In this document: in pieces, positions 38,861-42,602 of the stretch
Layout: each line of letters opens with the position of its first letter
Numbering within the stretch: the first letter of the stretch is position 1
Notes under the pieces: model-generated
Databases searched by the model: none
What the model was told of the DNA's origin: nothing
What the model saw: the letters and a program-made list of their open reading frames with translations, nothing else
Position numbers and translations under genes: made by a program
NCBI RefSeq assembly: GCF_029688865.1
Contig: NZ_JARUKV010000020.1
Location: 1 to 64,000, forward strand
Source of the DNA: Natronococcus sp. A-GB7
GTDB taxonomy: Archaea; Halobacteriota; Halobacteria; Halobacteriales; Natrialbaceae
Direction: 5' to 3'
DNA: 64,000 bases

Positions 38861-39295
38861 TCACGTCACGTCGTCGTGCGTGAGCAACTCCCGACCGCGT
38901 CCGTCCGCCGGGGAGCCGTAGGTAATCACCTCGAGCAGGTTCCCGTCCGGATCCAGGAAGTAGAACCCCTCGAACTCGCCCCAGTCGTAGGGACCCTGAT
39001 TGGGGAACTGATCGTCGAGATCGTCGACGTAGTCGTCGTAGCTCGCCCGATCGGTCTCGAACGCGAGGTGGGCCTTGTCCAGCGGGTGCTCGAGATCGGC
39101 GGGGTTCCAGCCGCCGGCTCGCCCCGTCTCGGCGAGCGTGACGACGGTGTCACCCACTTCGAACATGGCGTGCTCGCCATCGAACTCTTCCGGCGGTCGC
39201 CGAACCGACAGTCCGAGTTCGTCGCGGTAGAACGGGTACGTCGCCTCGAGGTCGTCGACGTCGACGTTGATGTGATCGACGGCCCGCATCGTCAC
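38861..39295 (-). CDS. VOC-family (glyoxalase/dioxygenase fold) protein
   Basis: 144 residues with the paired beta-alpha-beta-beta-beta units of the vicinal oxygen chelate fold. His8 in AVDHINVDVDDLE, His74/Glu79 in DKAHLAFE and Glu122 in DPDGNLLEVITY are the usual metal-ligand positions, so a divalent-metal enzyme is likely. Its ATG overlaps the stop of the upstream NMT1-like gene by four bases, tying it to the three-gene binding-protein-fold operon. Substrate unknown. Confidence 0.85.
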   Translation of the reverse strand: MTMRAVDHINVDVDDLEATYPFYRDELGLSVRRPPEEFDGEHAMFEVGDTVVTLAETGRAGGWNPADLEHPLDKAHLAFETDRASYDDYVDDLDDQFPNQGPYDWGEFEGFYFLDPDGNLLEVITYGSPADGRGRELLTHDDVT

Positions 39296-40263
39296 CGTCC
39301 CACCCGTTCGGCGTACTCGCGGACGATTCGGGCCTCGCTATCGAGGTAGTCGTTCGTCCACGCGGCGTCGGGTTCGATCTCGCCCTCGAGGAGGTCGGTT
39401 TCGGCGAGGGCGCTCGCGAGGCGTCGCCAGCGTGCCCCGTCGTGGTTCCCCCATCCCGCCTCCTCGACGTGCGGGCTGAACTGGAGATCCCGAGCGGCCG
39501 TCTCGAACTTTTCGCGCTCGATCCGGCGACGTCGCTCGAGGGTCGCGTTCCGCGCGACCAGGGAGTCGATCGCGGCCTCCGGATCTGCCGTCGCCTCGGC
39601 CCAACCGCGAGCGGTCGCCCGGAGGAACGCGCTCACGGTCCCGGATTCCTCGTCGGCGAAGGTTGGGTTCGTGACCAGCATCATCCCGTAGACGGGGAGG
39701 TGGTCCCCGATCGGAAGCTCGTCGGCGACCCGGTCGTGCTCGTACTCGAGTTCGAGGCCGTTAGTGACGACGCCGACGGCCGCGTCGACGCTGCCGTCGA
39801 GCACCTGGTGTTGGACGCGGTGGTGGGTGTGGGGATCGACCTCGAGCAGGTCGACCTCCTCGCGGATGCCGACGTCCTCGAGGAGTTGGGCGGTCAGGAT
39901 TCGGGTCTTCGTCGCTGAGGGGGCGACGGTGCGACCGACCAGCTGTTCGGGCTCCTCGAGGGGTTCGCCGAAGACGTCCCGGAGCGTGTAGATCGCCGCC
40001 GGCGTCTTCGCGGTCACCGCCGCGACGGCAAGCGGATCGTAGCCCTGGCTCTGCACCGAGAGGACGGCGCTGGCGCCGGCGAGGGCGATATCGGCCTCGG
40101 CCTCGTCCTTGGCCGCCTGCTCGGCGGCAAAGGGTGAGCCGTGGCCCTCGAGGAAGGCGACGTCCAGTCCCTCCTCCTCGTAGAACCCGCGCTCACGGGC
40201 GAGGAAGTATGGCGCCTGGAACCCGTTGGGTTCCCAGTTGAGCTGGAAGGTGAGCGTCTCCAT
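39292..40263 (-). CDS. NMT1/THI5-like periplasmic-binding-fold protein 1 (no signal peptide)
   Basis: 323 residues. It opens METLTFQLNWEPNGFQAPYF and LARERGFYEEEGLDV, the NMT1/THI5 domain signature (NWxPN...GxYxAxxxGxYxxxGLDV), but with no Tat/Sec signal or lipobox. A His-rich DPHTHHRVQHQV occurs near 143. The family includes ABC-transporter binding proteins as well as cytosolic enzymes of the same fold (THI5 pyrimidine synthase, dihydroxyphthalate decarboxylase). No ABC permease or ATPase is adjacent, so a cytoplasmic enzyme or ligand-binding role is inferred. It is third in a tight operon. Confidence 0.8.
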   Translation of the reverse strand: METLTFQLNWEPNGFQAPYFLARERGFYEEEGLDVAFLEGHGSPFAAEQAAKDEAEADIALAGASAVLSVQSQGYDPLAVAAVTAKTPAAIYTLRDVFGEPLEEPEQLVGRTVAPSATKTRILTAQLLEDVGIREEVDLLEVDPHTHHRVQHQVLDGSVDAAVGVVTNGLELEYEHDRVADELPIGDHLPVYGMMLVTNPTFADEESGTVSAFLRATARGWAEATADPEAAIDSLVARNATLERRRRIEREKFETAARDLQFSPHVEEAGWGNHDGARWRRLASALAETDLLEGEIEPDAAWTNDYLDSEARIVREYAERVGR

Positions 40264-40266
40264 CCG

Positions 40267-41268
40267 TCACACCTCCAGCCGGAACATGTCGTCGGGCACG
40301 TGATCGACGCCGAGCGCGTCGGCGCCCGCGACCTCGAGTAAGTGGTCGAACAGCCGATCCATCCCGTCGATCGTCTCCTCGTCCCAGTCGGCGACGACCA
40401 TGTCCCGCCAGCCGTCCCGAACGGCACGGACGATCTCGGGGTCGTCCTCGTACATCAGGCGCTCGCCGATGTCCTTCCAGAGCTCGTCGTCGCTCGTCAG
40501 CCGGTCGACGGCGTCACGGTAGGCGCCCTTGAATCCGCGTACCGCGTCGGGGTTCTCCGAGAGATACTGTTCGCTGGTCAGGAACGTCGAGATCGGGAGC
40601 TTCCGGTCAGTCTCGGAGAGATCCTGGACGAGTTCGGCCATCGGCAACACCTCACGATACGGCCCGGTCTCGGTGATCTCGGGGACGATCGGCCAGAACT
40701 GGAGGATCCCGTCGACCTCGCCGTCCTGGAGCATCCGTGTGAGCTCGACCTTCGAGCCCGCTTCGACGGGCGTCGCCTCCTCGTCGGGGTCGAACCCGTG
40801 GCGCTCCCGGCACGCGGCCCGCACGAGGATCCAGTTCTTGTCGAGGCGGCGAACGACGCCGATCCGACGGCCGCGGAGGTCGGTCAGGTCTTCGATCGGG
40901 GAGTCCTCGGGAGTGACGAGCCCGCCGACGGTCCGTCCGTACGGGTGGACCGCCACGATCGGCGCCCCGTCGGCGCGCTCGCGGGCCGTCGAGATGTAGT
41001 CGATGTCGATCAGGTCGGCGTCGCCCTCTTGCAGTTTCGCCTCGACGGTCTCGACCCCACCCTCGAGCGAGTCCGAGACGAGTTGCACGTCGAGGTGAAA
41101 GCCGTGCTCGTGGTCCAGCCCCAGCCGCTTGATCGTGTACAGCATGTACCGCGGGCTCCCGTTGTGCTCGAAGCGGGCCCGAAGAACGGGTCGATCGCCG
41201 GGTTCGTCGTGGTGGGCGTCGAGTTCGGCCTGCTGGCTCTCGATGTCGACGGCAGTTGATTCCGACAT
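40267..41268 (-). CDS. NMT1/THI5-like periplasmic-binding-fold protein 2 (no signal peptide)
   Basis: 333 residues from ATG 41268 (MSESTAVDIESQQAELDAHH). The frame is open far upstream only by overlap with the preceding gene. Ligand-binding-fold segments are DLIDIDYISTARERADGAPI, DLRGRRIGVVRRLDKNW and DGEVDGILQFWPIVPE. There is no export signal. Three bases separate it from the next gene, so it is co-translated with it. Divergent from proteins 1 and 3, suggesting three non-redundant functions or subunits. Confidence 0.78.
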   Translation of the reverse strand: MSESTAVDIESQQAELDAHHDEPGDRPVLRARFEHNGSPRYMLYTIKRLGLDHEHGFHLDVQLVSDSLEGGVETVEAKLQEGDADLIDIDYISTARERADGAPIVAVHPYGRTVGGLVTPEDSPIEDLTDLRGRRIGVVRRLDKNWILVRAACRERHGFDPDEEATPVEAGSKVELTRMLQDGEVDGILQFWPIVPEITETGPYREVLPMAELVQDLSETDRKLPISTFLTSEQYLSENPDAVRGFKGAYRDAVDRLTSDDELWKDIGERLMYEDDPEIVRAVRDGWRDMVVADWDEETIDGMDRLFDHLLEVAGADALGVDHVPDDMFRLEV

Positions 41269-41273
41269 CTCGG

Positions 41274-42170
41274 TCACCCCAGCGAGGCGACGATGGCGTC
41301 GATCTCGGCCTCGTCGTCGATCAGTTCGCGCTCTTTCATCCACTCGAGTTGCGTCCCGAGATCCTCTCGGTCGGCGAGCTCCGGCACCTCGTATCGCGGC
41401 ACCGTCACCCGCTCTCGAAGGGCGTCCATGTCGATGTCCTCGAAGAGATCGGGTGCGACGCGGGCATCCTTCTCGAGCATCTCGAGGTACTCCTCGCGGA
41501 ACGCCTCCGGAGCCTCGTTGATATCCCGAACGGCCCGGCCGTAGGCCGCGACGTACGCCTTGAGCAGGTCGGAGTCGACGTCGTCGCCGCCGACGATCCC
41601 CATGTGGTTCTCGAACTCGAGGACGGGCTCGAACCCCAGCTGCTCGGCCAGCGTGGACTGGGGATCCAGCAGCGTGACGGCGTCGACCTCGCCGTCCCGT
41701 AGCGCCCGCAGTCGATCGGTCGGCATCCCGTAGTGGACGAGCGAGACGTCCTCGGGAGCGACGTGTTCCTCGAGGGCTCGCATCGCGGTGTACTCCTGGC
41801 CGGTGCGGCGGTTGACGGCGACGTCGATCCCGGCCAGATCGGTCGGCGACTCGATCGCGGTTTCCGGCCGGGTGAACACGGTGTAGGGCTGGTCGGCGAA
41901 GGTGCCGTTCGCGACGACCTCGCCGTCGCCCATCCCCCACGTTCGCTTCAGGCTCTCCCACTTGCAGACGGGGTAGAGATCGACCTCGTAGTCGCCGGTT
42001 AGCGTCTCCTCGGCGGGGATATACTTGATCTCGACGGACCCGCGGTCGCGCTCGATCAGGTCGACGTCGAGTCCCTCGGCCTCGAAGTACCCCCGTTCGA
42101 CCGCTACCCGCTGTGGCAACACGAACGAGAACGGGAGGTGAAACAGCTTGAGCGTGTTATTGTCTGCCAT
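41274..42170 (-). CDS. NMT1/THI5-like periplasmic-binding-fold protein 3 (no signal peptide), first gene of operon
   Basis: 298 residues, start MADNNTLKLFHLPFSFVLPQ at ATG 42170. The core reads RVAVERGYFEAEGLDVDLIE, then GIDVAVNRRTGQEYTAMRAL and DGEVDAVTLLDPQSTLAEQL. The arrangement is reminiscent of cytosolic decarboxylases of this fold. There is no signal peptide or lipobox. On the minus strand a TATA-like GGTTTATC lies about 30 nt before the start, indicating a leaderless transcript. It leads the unit 41274-40267-39292-38861. Confidence 0.78.
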   Translation of the reverse strand: MADNNTLKLFHLPFSFVLPQRVAVERGYFEAEGLDVDLIERDRGSVEIKYIPAEETLTGDYEVDLYPVCKWESLKRTWGMGDGEVVANGTFADQPYTVFTRPETAIESPTDLAGIDVAVNRRTGQEYTAMRALEEHVAPEDVSLVHYGMPTDRLRALRDGEVDAVTLLDPQSTLAEQLGFEPVLEFENHMGIVGGDDVDSDLLKAYVAAYGRAVRDINEAPEAFREEYLEMLEKDARVAPDLFEDIDMDALRERVTVPRYEVPELADREDLGTQLEWMKERELIDDEAEIDAIVASLG

Positions 42171-42174
42171 GCAA

Positions 42175-42245
42175 TCACAATGATCACGAATTCACTGATA
42201 AACCTTTCTCGTCAACTTTTATAAGAGGTGTTGTGGTTGTGTGTC
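42175..42245. promoter_or_regulatory. Divergent promoter between the NMT1-like operon and the cupin gene
   Basis: TTTATAAG at 42217-42224 (plus) sits 22-29 nt before the cupin ATG 42246, and GGTTTATC (minus, about 42199-42206) serves the operon starting at 42170. The two TATA boxes nearly abut, so both transcripts could be controlled from one site. AATCACAATGATCAC at 42174-42188 is an imperfect inverted repeat around TGATCA. Confidence 0.5.
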
Positions 42246-42602
42246 ATGGGTCGTGATATCATGGAAACGGTGAACACCGGTGACGCGGGTTTCGAGGAGG
42301 TCCACGATGGCGTCTACCTCGCGGACCTCGCGACGGGACGAGAGGCGAGCGTGAAGTACTGGCGCATCGATCCGGGGGCAACCCTCCCGGTTCACGAACA
42401 CGACAACGAACAGATCGGCTACATGCTCGAGGGGACGCTGGTCGCGATAGCCGACGGCGAGGAGGTACGGCTCGAGCCCGGGGACTGCTATCACTTTCGG
42501 AGCCGGGAACGTCACGGGGCCGAGAACCGATCGTCGAGCCCCGCTGTCGGAATCGGCGTTCTCGCTCCGCCGCGGGAACGGCCCGACTGGGGTGATCGGT
42601 GA
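42246..42602 (+). CDS. Single-domain cupin protein
   Basis: 118 residues. Cupin motif 1 is partly recognisable as LPVHEHDNEQIGYMLEGTLV (His, His, Glu ligands) and motif 2 as LEPGDCYHFRSRERHG (His). The metal set H-x-H...E...H is complete. A leaderless start at 42246 fits the TATA box; ATG 42261 (METVNTGDAG) is an alternative. It is divergent from the NMT1-like/VOC operon, so a regulatory or enzymatic link is likely. Function could be a sugar- or acid-binding sensor or a dioxygenase/isomerase. Confidence 0.82.
   Translation: MGRDIMETVNTGDAGFEEVHDGVYLADLATGREASVKYWRIDPGATLPVHEHDNEQIGYMLEGTLVAIADGEEVRLEPGDCYHFRSRERHGAENRSSSPAVGIGVLAPPRERPDWGDR

What the first reader, a model, noticed from the sequence alone, without database searches (positions are those of the whole stretch)
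38861..42602. Three signal-less NMT1/THI5-fold proteins in one operon with a VOC enzyme, divergent from a cupin, and no transporter
Seen: genes at 41274, 40267 and 39292 encode periplasmic-binding-type proteins that start directly with the mature fold and have no Sec/Tat signal or lipobox. They are joined by gaps of 3-5 bases, and the last overlaps a VOC protein by four bases. A cupin is transcribed from an abutting divergent promoter. There is no ABC permease or ATPase. Known: THI5, dihydroxyphthalate decarboxylase and the futalosine-pathway MqnA/MqnD show that this fold can be a cytosolic enzyme. Inference: a multi-component cytoplasmic pathway (aromatic acid or cofactor/pyrimidine chemistry) using three non-identical PBP-fold proteins plus metal enzymes, possibly with the downstream methyltransferase.
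Basis: partly seen in the sequence, partly recalled or inferred. Interest (0 to 1): 0.78.

Follow-up and report, generated by a model that had tools for sequence, protein, structure and literature searches.

The report
Archaeal PQQ-cofactor gene cluster, likely
A salt-loving archaeon carries a five-gene cluster of three intracellular 'binding-protein-fold' proteins and two metal enzymes; across haloarchaea it travels with rare-earth-type, PQQ-using alcohol dehydrogenases in genomes where the standard PQQ-making genes were not found, so it is probably how these archaea handle or make that cofactor.

Summary
Three signal-less NMT1-fold genes (g1 41274-42170, g2 40267-41268, g3 39292-40263, minus strand) run into a VOC gene, divergent from a cupin, with no transporter beside them.

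The best lead is not thiamine, phthalate or menaquinone but PQQ. The g2 model's three best PDB matches are PqqT with bound PQQ (TM 0.92). g2 shares the LDK[N/S]W motif with bacterial PqqT homologues, and all ten bacterial homologues inspected lie beside PQQ dehydrogenase, quinoprotein-relay or pqq genes.

Among 292 haloarchaeal genomes, 41 have g1 and the same 41 have g2. Of these, 40 encode a PQQ alcohol dehydrogenase of the PedH/XoxF kind; only 10 of the other 251 do (Fisher p = 1e-38, not corrected for phylogeny). In 21 genomes the two lie within 12 kb. All 28 dehydrogenases read carry the WDYD lanthanide signature. No match to PqqC, and none over cut-off to PqqE, was found. Every dehydrogenase genome has this cluster, a DH-linked ABC importer, or both.

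Best explanation: a cytoplasmic PQQ supply/handling module with a PqqT-family protein that lost its export signal and transporter. Whether it makes PQQ or only binds and reconditions it is undecided.

The parts
41274..42170 (-). g1: signal-less NMT1-fold protein, 298 aa, first gene of the operon
   Evidence: PF09084 2e-12; about 100 invariant residues in 20 orthologues; AlphaFold pLDDT 88; SBP/THI5-like fold, no close relative
40267..41268 (-). g2: signal-less PqqT-family protein (PQQ-binding SBP family), 333 aa from ATG
   Evidence: 9b1u E 8e-27; Foldseek top three hits PqqT, TM 0.92; 100/99 clade with bacterial PqqT homologues, LDK[N/S]W motif
39292..40263 (-). g3: signal-less NMT1/ThiY-like protein, 323 aa; sister group of the SBP of the dehydrogenase-linked ABC importer
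   Evidence: (PF09084 2e-28)
38861..39289 (-). VOC (glyoxalase-fold) protein with an intact 2-His-1-Glu metal site (ATG start; a GTG at 39295 is possible)
42261..42602 (+). Cupin_2 protein, divergent; His/His/Gln/His metal positions invariant (starts at 42228 or 42246 are possible)
42196..42224 (.). conserved 29-bp near-palindrome with TATA-like ends in the shared divergent promoter
   Evidence: present between g1 and cupin in 23 aligned loci

Best explanation
The five genes form a cytoplasmic supply or handling module for the quinone cofactor PQQ, serving lanthanide-type PQQ alcohol dehydrogenases of haloarchaea. g2 is a PqqT-family protein that has lost its signal peptide and transporter and holds PQQ, or its last precursor, inside the cell. 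g3, a cytoplasmic sister of the importer SBP, and g1 hold related precursors or adducts. The VOC and cupin metal enzymes act on the bound compound to finish, repair or recondition it, and the product is loaded into the signal-less dehydrogenase. Shown here by computation: operon conservation, absence of export signals, membership of g2 in the PqqT family, physical and phylogenetic linkage to PQQ dehydrogenases, no PqqC match and no PqqE or PqqB match over cut-off in the carriers tested, and complementarity with a DH-linked ABC importer. Inferred: ligand identity, catalysis by VOC and cupin, order of steps. My estimates: PQQ-linked at all 0.85; cofactor supply/handling rather than a substrate pathway 0.6; real synthesis of PQQ from non-PQQ precursors about 0.3.
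For: g2: best PDB sequence match PqqT; Foldseek top three are PqqT structures at E about 4e-23, next hit 1.8e-14; starred clade with bacterial PqqT homologues, LDK[N/S]W found only in that clade. Ten of ten bacterial homologues with annotation lie beside PQQ-dehydrogenase, quinoprotein-relay and/or pqqABCDE genes. Co-occurrence: operon in 41 of 292 genomes, PQQ-DH in 40 of those and in 10 of the other 251, p = 1.3e-38; at genus level 12 of 13 versus 6 of 64, p = 6e-9. Within 12 kb of a PQQ-DH in 21 genomes. Operon present with quite different DH subgroups (7 genomes with only divergent DHs), which argues for the cofactor rather than one substrate. Every PQQ-DH genome has the operon (17), the importer (10) or both (23), none neither. 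PqqC 0 of 51 haloarchaeal genomes and PqqE none over cut-off in the same 51, each with a positive control in S. meliloti that rings far over cut-off; PqqB none over cut-off in the 23 tested. VOC and cupin metal ligands invariant.
Against: Ten genomes have a closely related PQQ-DH but no operon, so it is not strictly required. One genome (G037) has the operon without a recognised PQQ-DH. No gene of the operon resembles a known PQQ-biosynthesis enzyme. Binding of PQQ is not shown; pocket residues other than the LDK[N/S]W lysine could not be compared, and its equation with the PQQ-contacting K142 of PqqT is my numbering inference. Haloarchaeal genomes are phylogenetically related, so the p-values overstate the evidence, and the bit-score thresholds were chosen after seeing the natural gaps. 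The complementarity alone has p of about 0.009. The PqqB search had no positive control.
Confidence: 0.6

Rival explanations
1. Substrate pathway: the operon degrades or activates an alcohol-derived compound oxidised by the PQQ dehydrogenase and then by the neighbouring aldehyde ferredoxin oxidoreductase; g1-g3 act as decarboxylase-like enzymes (as Pht5 or DszB do in this fold) with VOC and cupin oxygenases.
For: AOR-family genes lie next to the operon in 8 loci; an aldehyde dehydrogenase is next to it in Haloterrigena turkmenica; the fold has catalytic members (DszB, dihydroxyphthalate decarboxylase among the weaker Foldseek hits).
Against: The operon occurs with several dehydrogenase subgroups that share only about 34-47% identity; g2 is specifically PqqT-like; the complementarity with an importer is harder to explain.
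Confidence: 0.22
2. Lanthanide handling: the module binds or chelates rare-earth ions, or a PQQ-lanthanide complex, for metal insertion into the DxD-type dehydrogenase.
For: All 28 haloarchaeal dehydrogenases read carry WDYD; PqqT was solved with PQQ and Gd3+.
Against: No lanmodulin-like or acidic metal-binding motif was noticed in g1-g3 (not systematically searched); VOC and cupin sites are ordinary mononuclear metal sites.
Confidence: 0.1
3. THI5/ThiY-type pyrimidine (thiamine) chemistry.
For: g3 matches the formylaminopyrimidine-binding protein 3ix1 and THI5; the window genome itself gave no ThiC hit.
Against: THI5 catalytic Lys/His and the CCCFC motif are absent from g3; ThiC is present in 13 of 19 carriers; does not explain the PQQ-DH linkage.
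Confidence: 0.03
4. Orphan ABC substrate-binding proteins that are exported by an unrecognised route and shared with a transporter encoded elsewhere.
For: An NMT1-type importer exists in 23 of 41 carriers.
Against: About 29 orthologues each of g1-g3 have no signal; the importer has its own Tat-lipoprotein SBP; 18 carriers lack the importer.
Confidence: 0.05

Closest known systems
PqqT (periplasmic PQQ-binding protein of Methylobacterium extorquens; PDB 9b1u/9b1v/9ooz; PMC12124388, PMC12828617)
   Same: g2: same fold (TM 0.92), same family by tree, LDK[N/S]W motif, always near PQQ enzymes
   Different: g2 has no signal peptide, no ABC permease/ATPase partner, and sits in an operon with two further SBP-fold proteins and two metal enzymes, in archaea
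ThiY/THI5 and NMT1-type ABC binding proteins
   Same: g3 and g1 share the fold; g3 is closest to ThiY-like SBPs and to the SBP of the quinoprotein-linked haloarchaeal importer
   Different: no export signal; THI5 catalytic residues missing
XoxF/PedH lanthanide-type PQQ alcohol dehydrogenases (the linked enzyme, not in this window)
   Same: PF01011/TIGR03075-type propeller, DxD metal signature, mostly with the Cys-Cys pair
   Different: haloarchaeal, no signal peptide of its own, below the TIGR03075 cut-off (352 of 480 bits), paired with an unknown ~300-aa partner
Canonical PQQ biosynthesis (pqqABCDE)
   Same: serves the same class of enzyme; co-located with bacterial g2 homologues
   Different: no PqqC match and no PqqE match over cut-off in the carriers; none of the five genes is homologous to pqqA-E

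Membership tests
PqqT family (g2) | closest fold and sequence relative is PqqT rather than other NMT1/SsuA proteins | tested here: met
PqqT family (g2) | LDK[N/S]W ligand-loop motif (lysine probably K142 of PqqT) | tested here: met
   invariant in 21 orthologues
PqqT family (g2) | signal peptide / periplasmic location | tested here: not met
   bacterial homologues have one
PqqT family (g2) | ABC permease and ATPase partners | tested here: not met
   present in bacterial homologues
PqqT family (g2) | binds PQQ with high affinity | not testable with these tools
   needs purified protein
THI5 HMP synthase (g3) | active-site Lys62/His66 and CCCFC motif | tested here: not met
   alignment: Ala at both positions, no cysteines
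MqnA/MqnD | match to the MqnA/MqnD profile families in Pfam or NCBIfam | tested here: not met
   (no hit at E<=0.1)
Dihydroxyphthalate decarboxylase (Pht5) | close structural relative and catalytic site | tested here: inconclusive
   only TM about 0.5 to 9jp7; residues not compared
ABC transporter SBP | export signal or lipobox plus linked permease | tested here: not met
Canonical PQQ biosynthesis | PqqC and PqqE over curated cut-off | tested here: not met
   with positive control W01
Lanthanide-type PQQ dehydrogenase (linked gene) | PF01011 propeller and DxD at the metal site | tested here: met
   (28 of 28 WDYD)
Lanthanide-type PQQ dehydrogenase (linked gene) | PQQ and Ln3+ bound, activity | not testable with these tools
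   needs enzyme

The most novel reading that the evidence does not exclude
The operon encodes a second, non-peptide route to PQQ (or a PQQ-like quinone) that works in the archaeal cytoplasm: small-molecule intermediates are carried by three repurposed binding-protein-fold proteins and oxidised by a VOC and a cupin enzyme, replacing pqqABCDE.
Probability: 0.28. Interest if true: 0.92.

Novelty: new variant of a known kind. Interest (0 to 1): 0.72.

Why it matters
PQQ and lanthanide-dependent alcohol oxidation are treated in the literature as bacterial; a 2026 review states that XoxF is suspected to have emerged in Bacteria after the split from Archaea (PMC12997859). Here a sizeable group of haloarchaea carries lanthanide-signature PQQ dehydrogenases in genomes where no PQQ-making genes were found, and a conserved five-gene cluster that tracks them. 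If the link is right, it shows where to look for how archaea obtain PQQ and gives a case of transporter binding proteins turned into intracellular cofactor carriers. The question is directly testable with one deletion strain and a PQQ assay.

Tried and rejected
Thiamine-pyrimidine role (THI5 residues absent, ThiC common in carriers). MqnA/D (no profile hit). Canonical PQQ biosynthesis (PqqC, PqqE and PqqB searches; PqqC and PqqE with S. meliloti as positive control). Methyltransferase as part of the unit (only 4 loci). Shared regulon of operon, importer and dehydrogenase: the 29-bp promoter palindrome scores high at 5 of 6 importer-SBP promoters, but for the importer the signal vanishes when the TATA-like ends are left out, so I do not claim it. 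g1 homologues outside haloarchaea (25-33% identity) have mixed contexts and gave no clue. Literature searches for haloarchaeal PQQ or lanthanide enzymes found nothing; subscription papers are not covered.

Full report
What is there. g1 (298 aa), g2 (333 aa) and g3 (323 aa) pass the NMT1 cut-off of Pfam; VOC and cupin are confirmed. No permease or ATPase lies next to them. Starts are solid: in the window the open frames of g1 and g3 leave 7 and 1 residues upstream, and about 29 or more orthologues of each gene begin with the mature fold.

Conservation. Of 292 haloarchaeal genomes, 41 encode g1 above 400 bits (the next hits are at about 110 bits) and exactly the same 41 encode g2. In the fetched loci the order g1-g2-g3 is fixed; VOC follows g3, or lies divergently beside the cupin, or lies a few genes away; the cupin is divergent from g1. 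A scan of 84,980 bacterial and archaeal species with the g1 profile returned only Halobacteria and haloarchaeal MAGs: Natronococcus, Natribaculum, Natrialba, Natrinema, Halopiger, Halalkalicoccus, Halolamina, Halorientalis, Halogranum, Haloplanus, Halomarina and others. The window itself is from Natronococcus, judged by its same-genus relatives.

The lead. g2 has an unexpectedly strong PDB match, 9b1u (E 8e-27). The AlphaFold model of g2 (pLDDT 88.9) has as its three best Foldseek hits the PqqT structures 9b1v, 9b1u and 9ooz, with PQQ (and in 9b1v also Gd3+) bound (E 4e-23, TM 0.92), about nine orders of magnitude ahead of SsuA and THI5. [quoted passage not shown]). A maximum-likelihood tree places g2 with PqqT and its bacterial homologues (100/99), and the motif LDK[N/S]W occurs in that clade only. 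The lysine is probably K142, the residue engineered in PqqT; this rests on my numbering (a 27-residue signal peptide) and is an inference.

Bacterial homologues. tblastn finds 171 plasmid records, mostly alphaproteobacteria, at about 30% identity. I opened ten annotated neighbourhoods. All ten have the homologue as SBP of an ABC transporter beside PQQ-dependent dehydrogenases, quinoprotein-relay genes or pqqABCDE: Sinorhizobium meliloti, Qingshengfaniella, Sagittula, Phaeobacter, Ruegeria, Azospirillum, Mameliella, Pseudosulfitobacter, Sulfitobacter, Phyllobacterium. So the family is PQQ-linked in bacteria, and the haloarchaeal branch has lost signal and transporter.

Haloarchaeal dehydrogenases. 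The gene most often found near the operon is a methanol/ethanol-type PQQ dehydrogenase (PF01011; TIGR03075 at 352 bits, below its cut-off of 480; best PDB match a PedH-type quinoprotein ethanol dehydrogenase, 6zcv). All 28 copies read have WDYD, the extra aspartate of lanthanide enzymes; most have the Cys-Cys pair; none has an own signal peptide. Its ~300-aa partner of unknown family carries a twin-arginine motif in divergent relatives only, so location is open.

Co-occurrence. A PQQ dehydrogenase (above 250 bits; G163 counted from three adjacent pieces) is present in 40 of 41 operon genomes and in 10 of the other 251 (p = 1.3e-38; by genus 12 of 13 versus 6 of 64, p = 6e-9). In 21 genomes they lie within 12 kb. 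Seven operon genomes have only divergent dehydrogenase subgroups, which favours a role at the level of the cofactor over one substrate. These p-values ignore relatedness, but 13 genera in four families are involved.

Two supplies. A second NMT1-type cassette (Tat-lipoprotein SBP, two permeases, ATPase, and an HTH protein fused to an NMT1 domain) sits within 16 kb of a PQQ dehydrogenase in 30 of the 35 genomes that have it, including the window's own genome (locus L009). Every one of the 50 dehydrogenase genomes has the operon (17), the cassette (10) or both (23); none has neither (the chance that all ten operon-free ones have the cassette is about 0.009). I read the cassette as an importer of PQQ or a precursor and the operon as an intracellular supply or handling system. 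g3 is the sister group of the cassette's SBP, so its ligand should be related.

No standard synthesis found. PqqC was found in none of 51 haloarchaeal genomes and PqqE in none over cut-off, while both ring strongly in S. meliloti. PqqB-like hits are below cut-off in the 23 genomes tested, without a positive control. The VOC 2-His-1-Glu site (H6, H74, E120) and the cupin H45/H47/Q51/H85 site are invariant, so chemistry is likely, but which reaction is unknown. g1 has no informative relative.

Limits. No ligand, location or activity has been measured. The ten dehydrogenase genomes without the operon show that it is dispensable when another source exists. G037 has the operon without a recognisable dehydrogenase. 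A substrate pathway with AOR-type enzymes remains the main rival.

Noticed in passing
L009:2853-10597 (window genome, contig C2): Lanthanide-signature PQQ dehydrogenase, its ~300-aa partner, and an NMT1-type ABC cassette with a Tat-lipoprotein SBP and an HTH-NMT1 fusion regulator: candidate PQQ importer and sensor.
   Followed up: partly
L128:7026-7967, L129:10097-11032, L130:7784-8695, L131:6789-7736 versus L009:4578-5480: The unknown ~300-aa partner of the PQQ dehydrogenase has a twin-arginine motif in divergent clades but not in the main clade, suggesting a switch between hitch-hiker export and the cytoplasm.
   Followed up: partly
L052-L055 (for example L055:8914-9867): A 30%-identical, signal-less homologue of g1 lies next to a complete ABC transporter with its own exported SBP in other haloarchaea: another cytoplasmic SBP-fold protein paired with an importer.
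   Followed up: no
window:42196-42224: Conserved near-palindromic 29-bp element with back-to-back TATA-like ends in the divergent promoter; similar elements before importer SBP genes, but not separable from TATA content.
   Followed up: partly
L065:4301-6478, L136:8944-11109, L132:5765-7924, L133:3138-5462, L135:6151-8319, L126:11309-13456: A CDC48-type AAA ATPase paralogue is repeatedly next to the PQQ dehydrogenase pair, possibly a maturation factor.
   Followed up: no
G090 contig C18:267690-268415 and G280: Importer permease without a recognisable PQQ dehydrogenase; in G090 it has an internal TGA, consistent with decay after loss of the dehydrogenase.
   Followed up: no
L056:9891-12062, L076:6832-8994: g2 is duplicated in tandem, with a diverged first copy, in genus g54 genomes (L056, L076).
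   Followed up: no
window:42841-45201: Long Tat-type secreted protein with many repeats of a V-x-QVQ-like unit and an acidic proline-rich tail.
   Followed up: no
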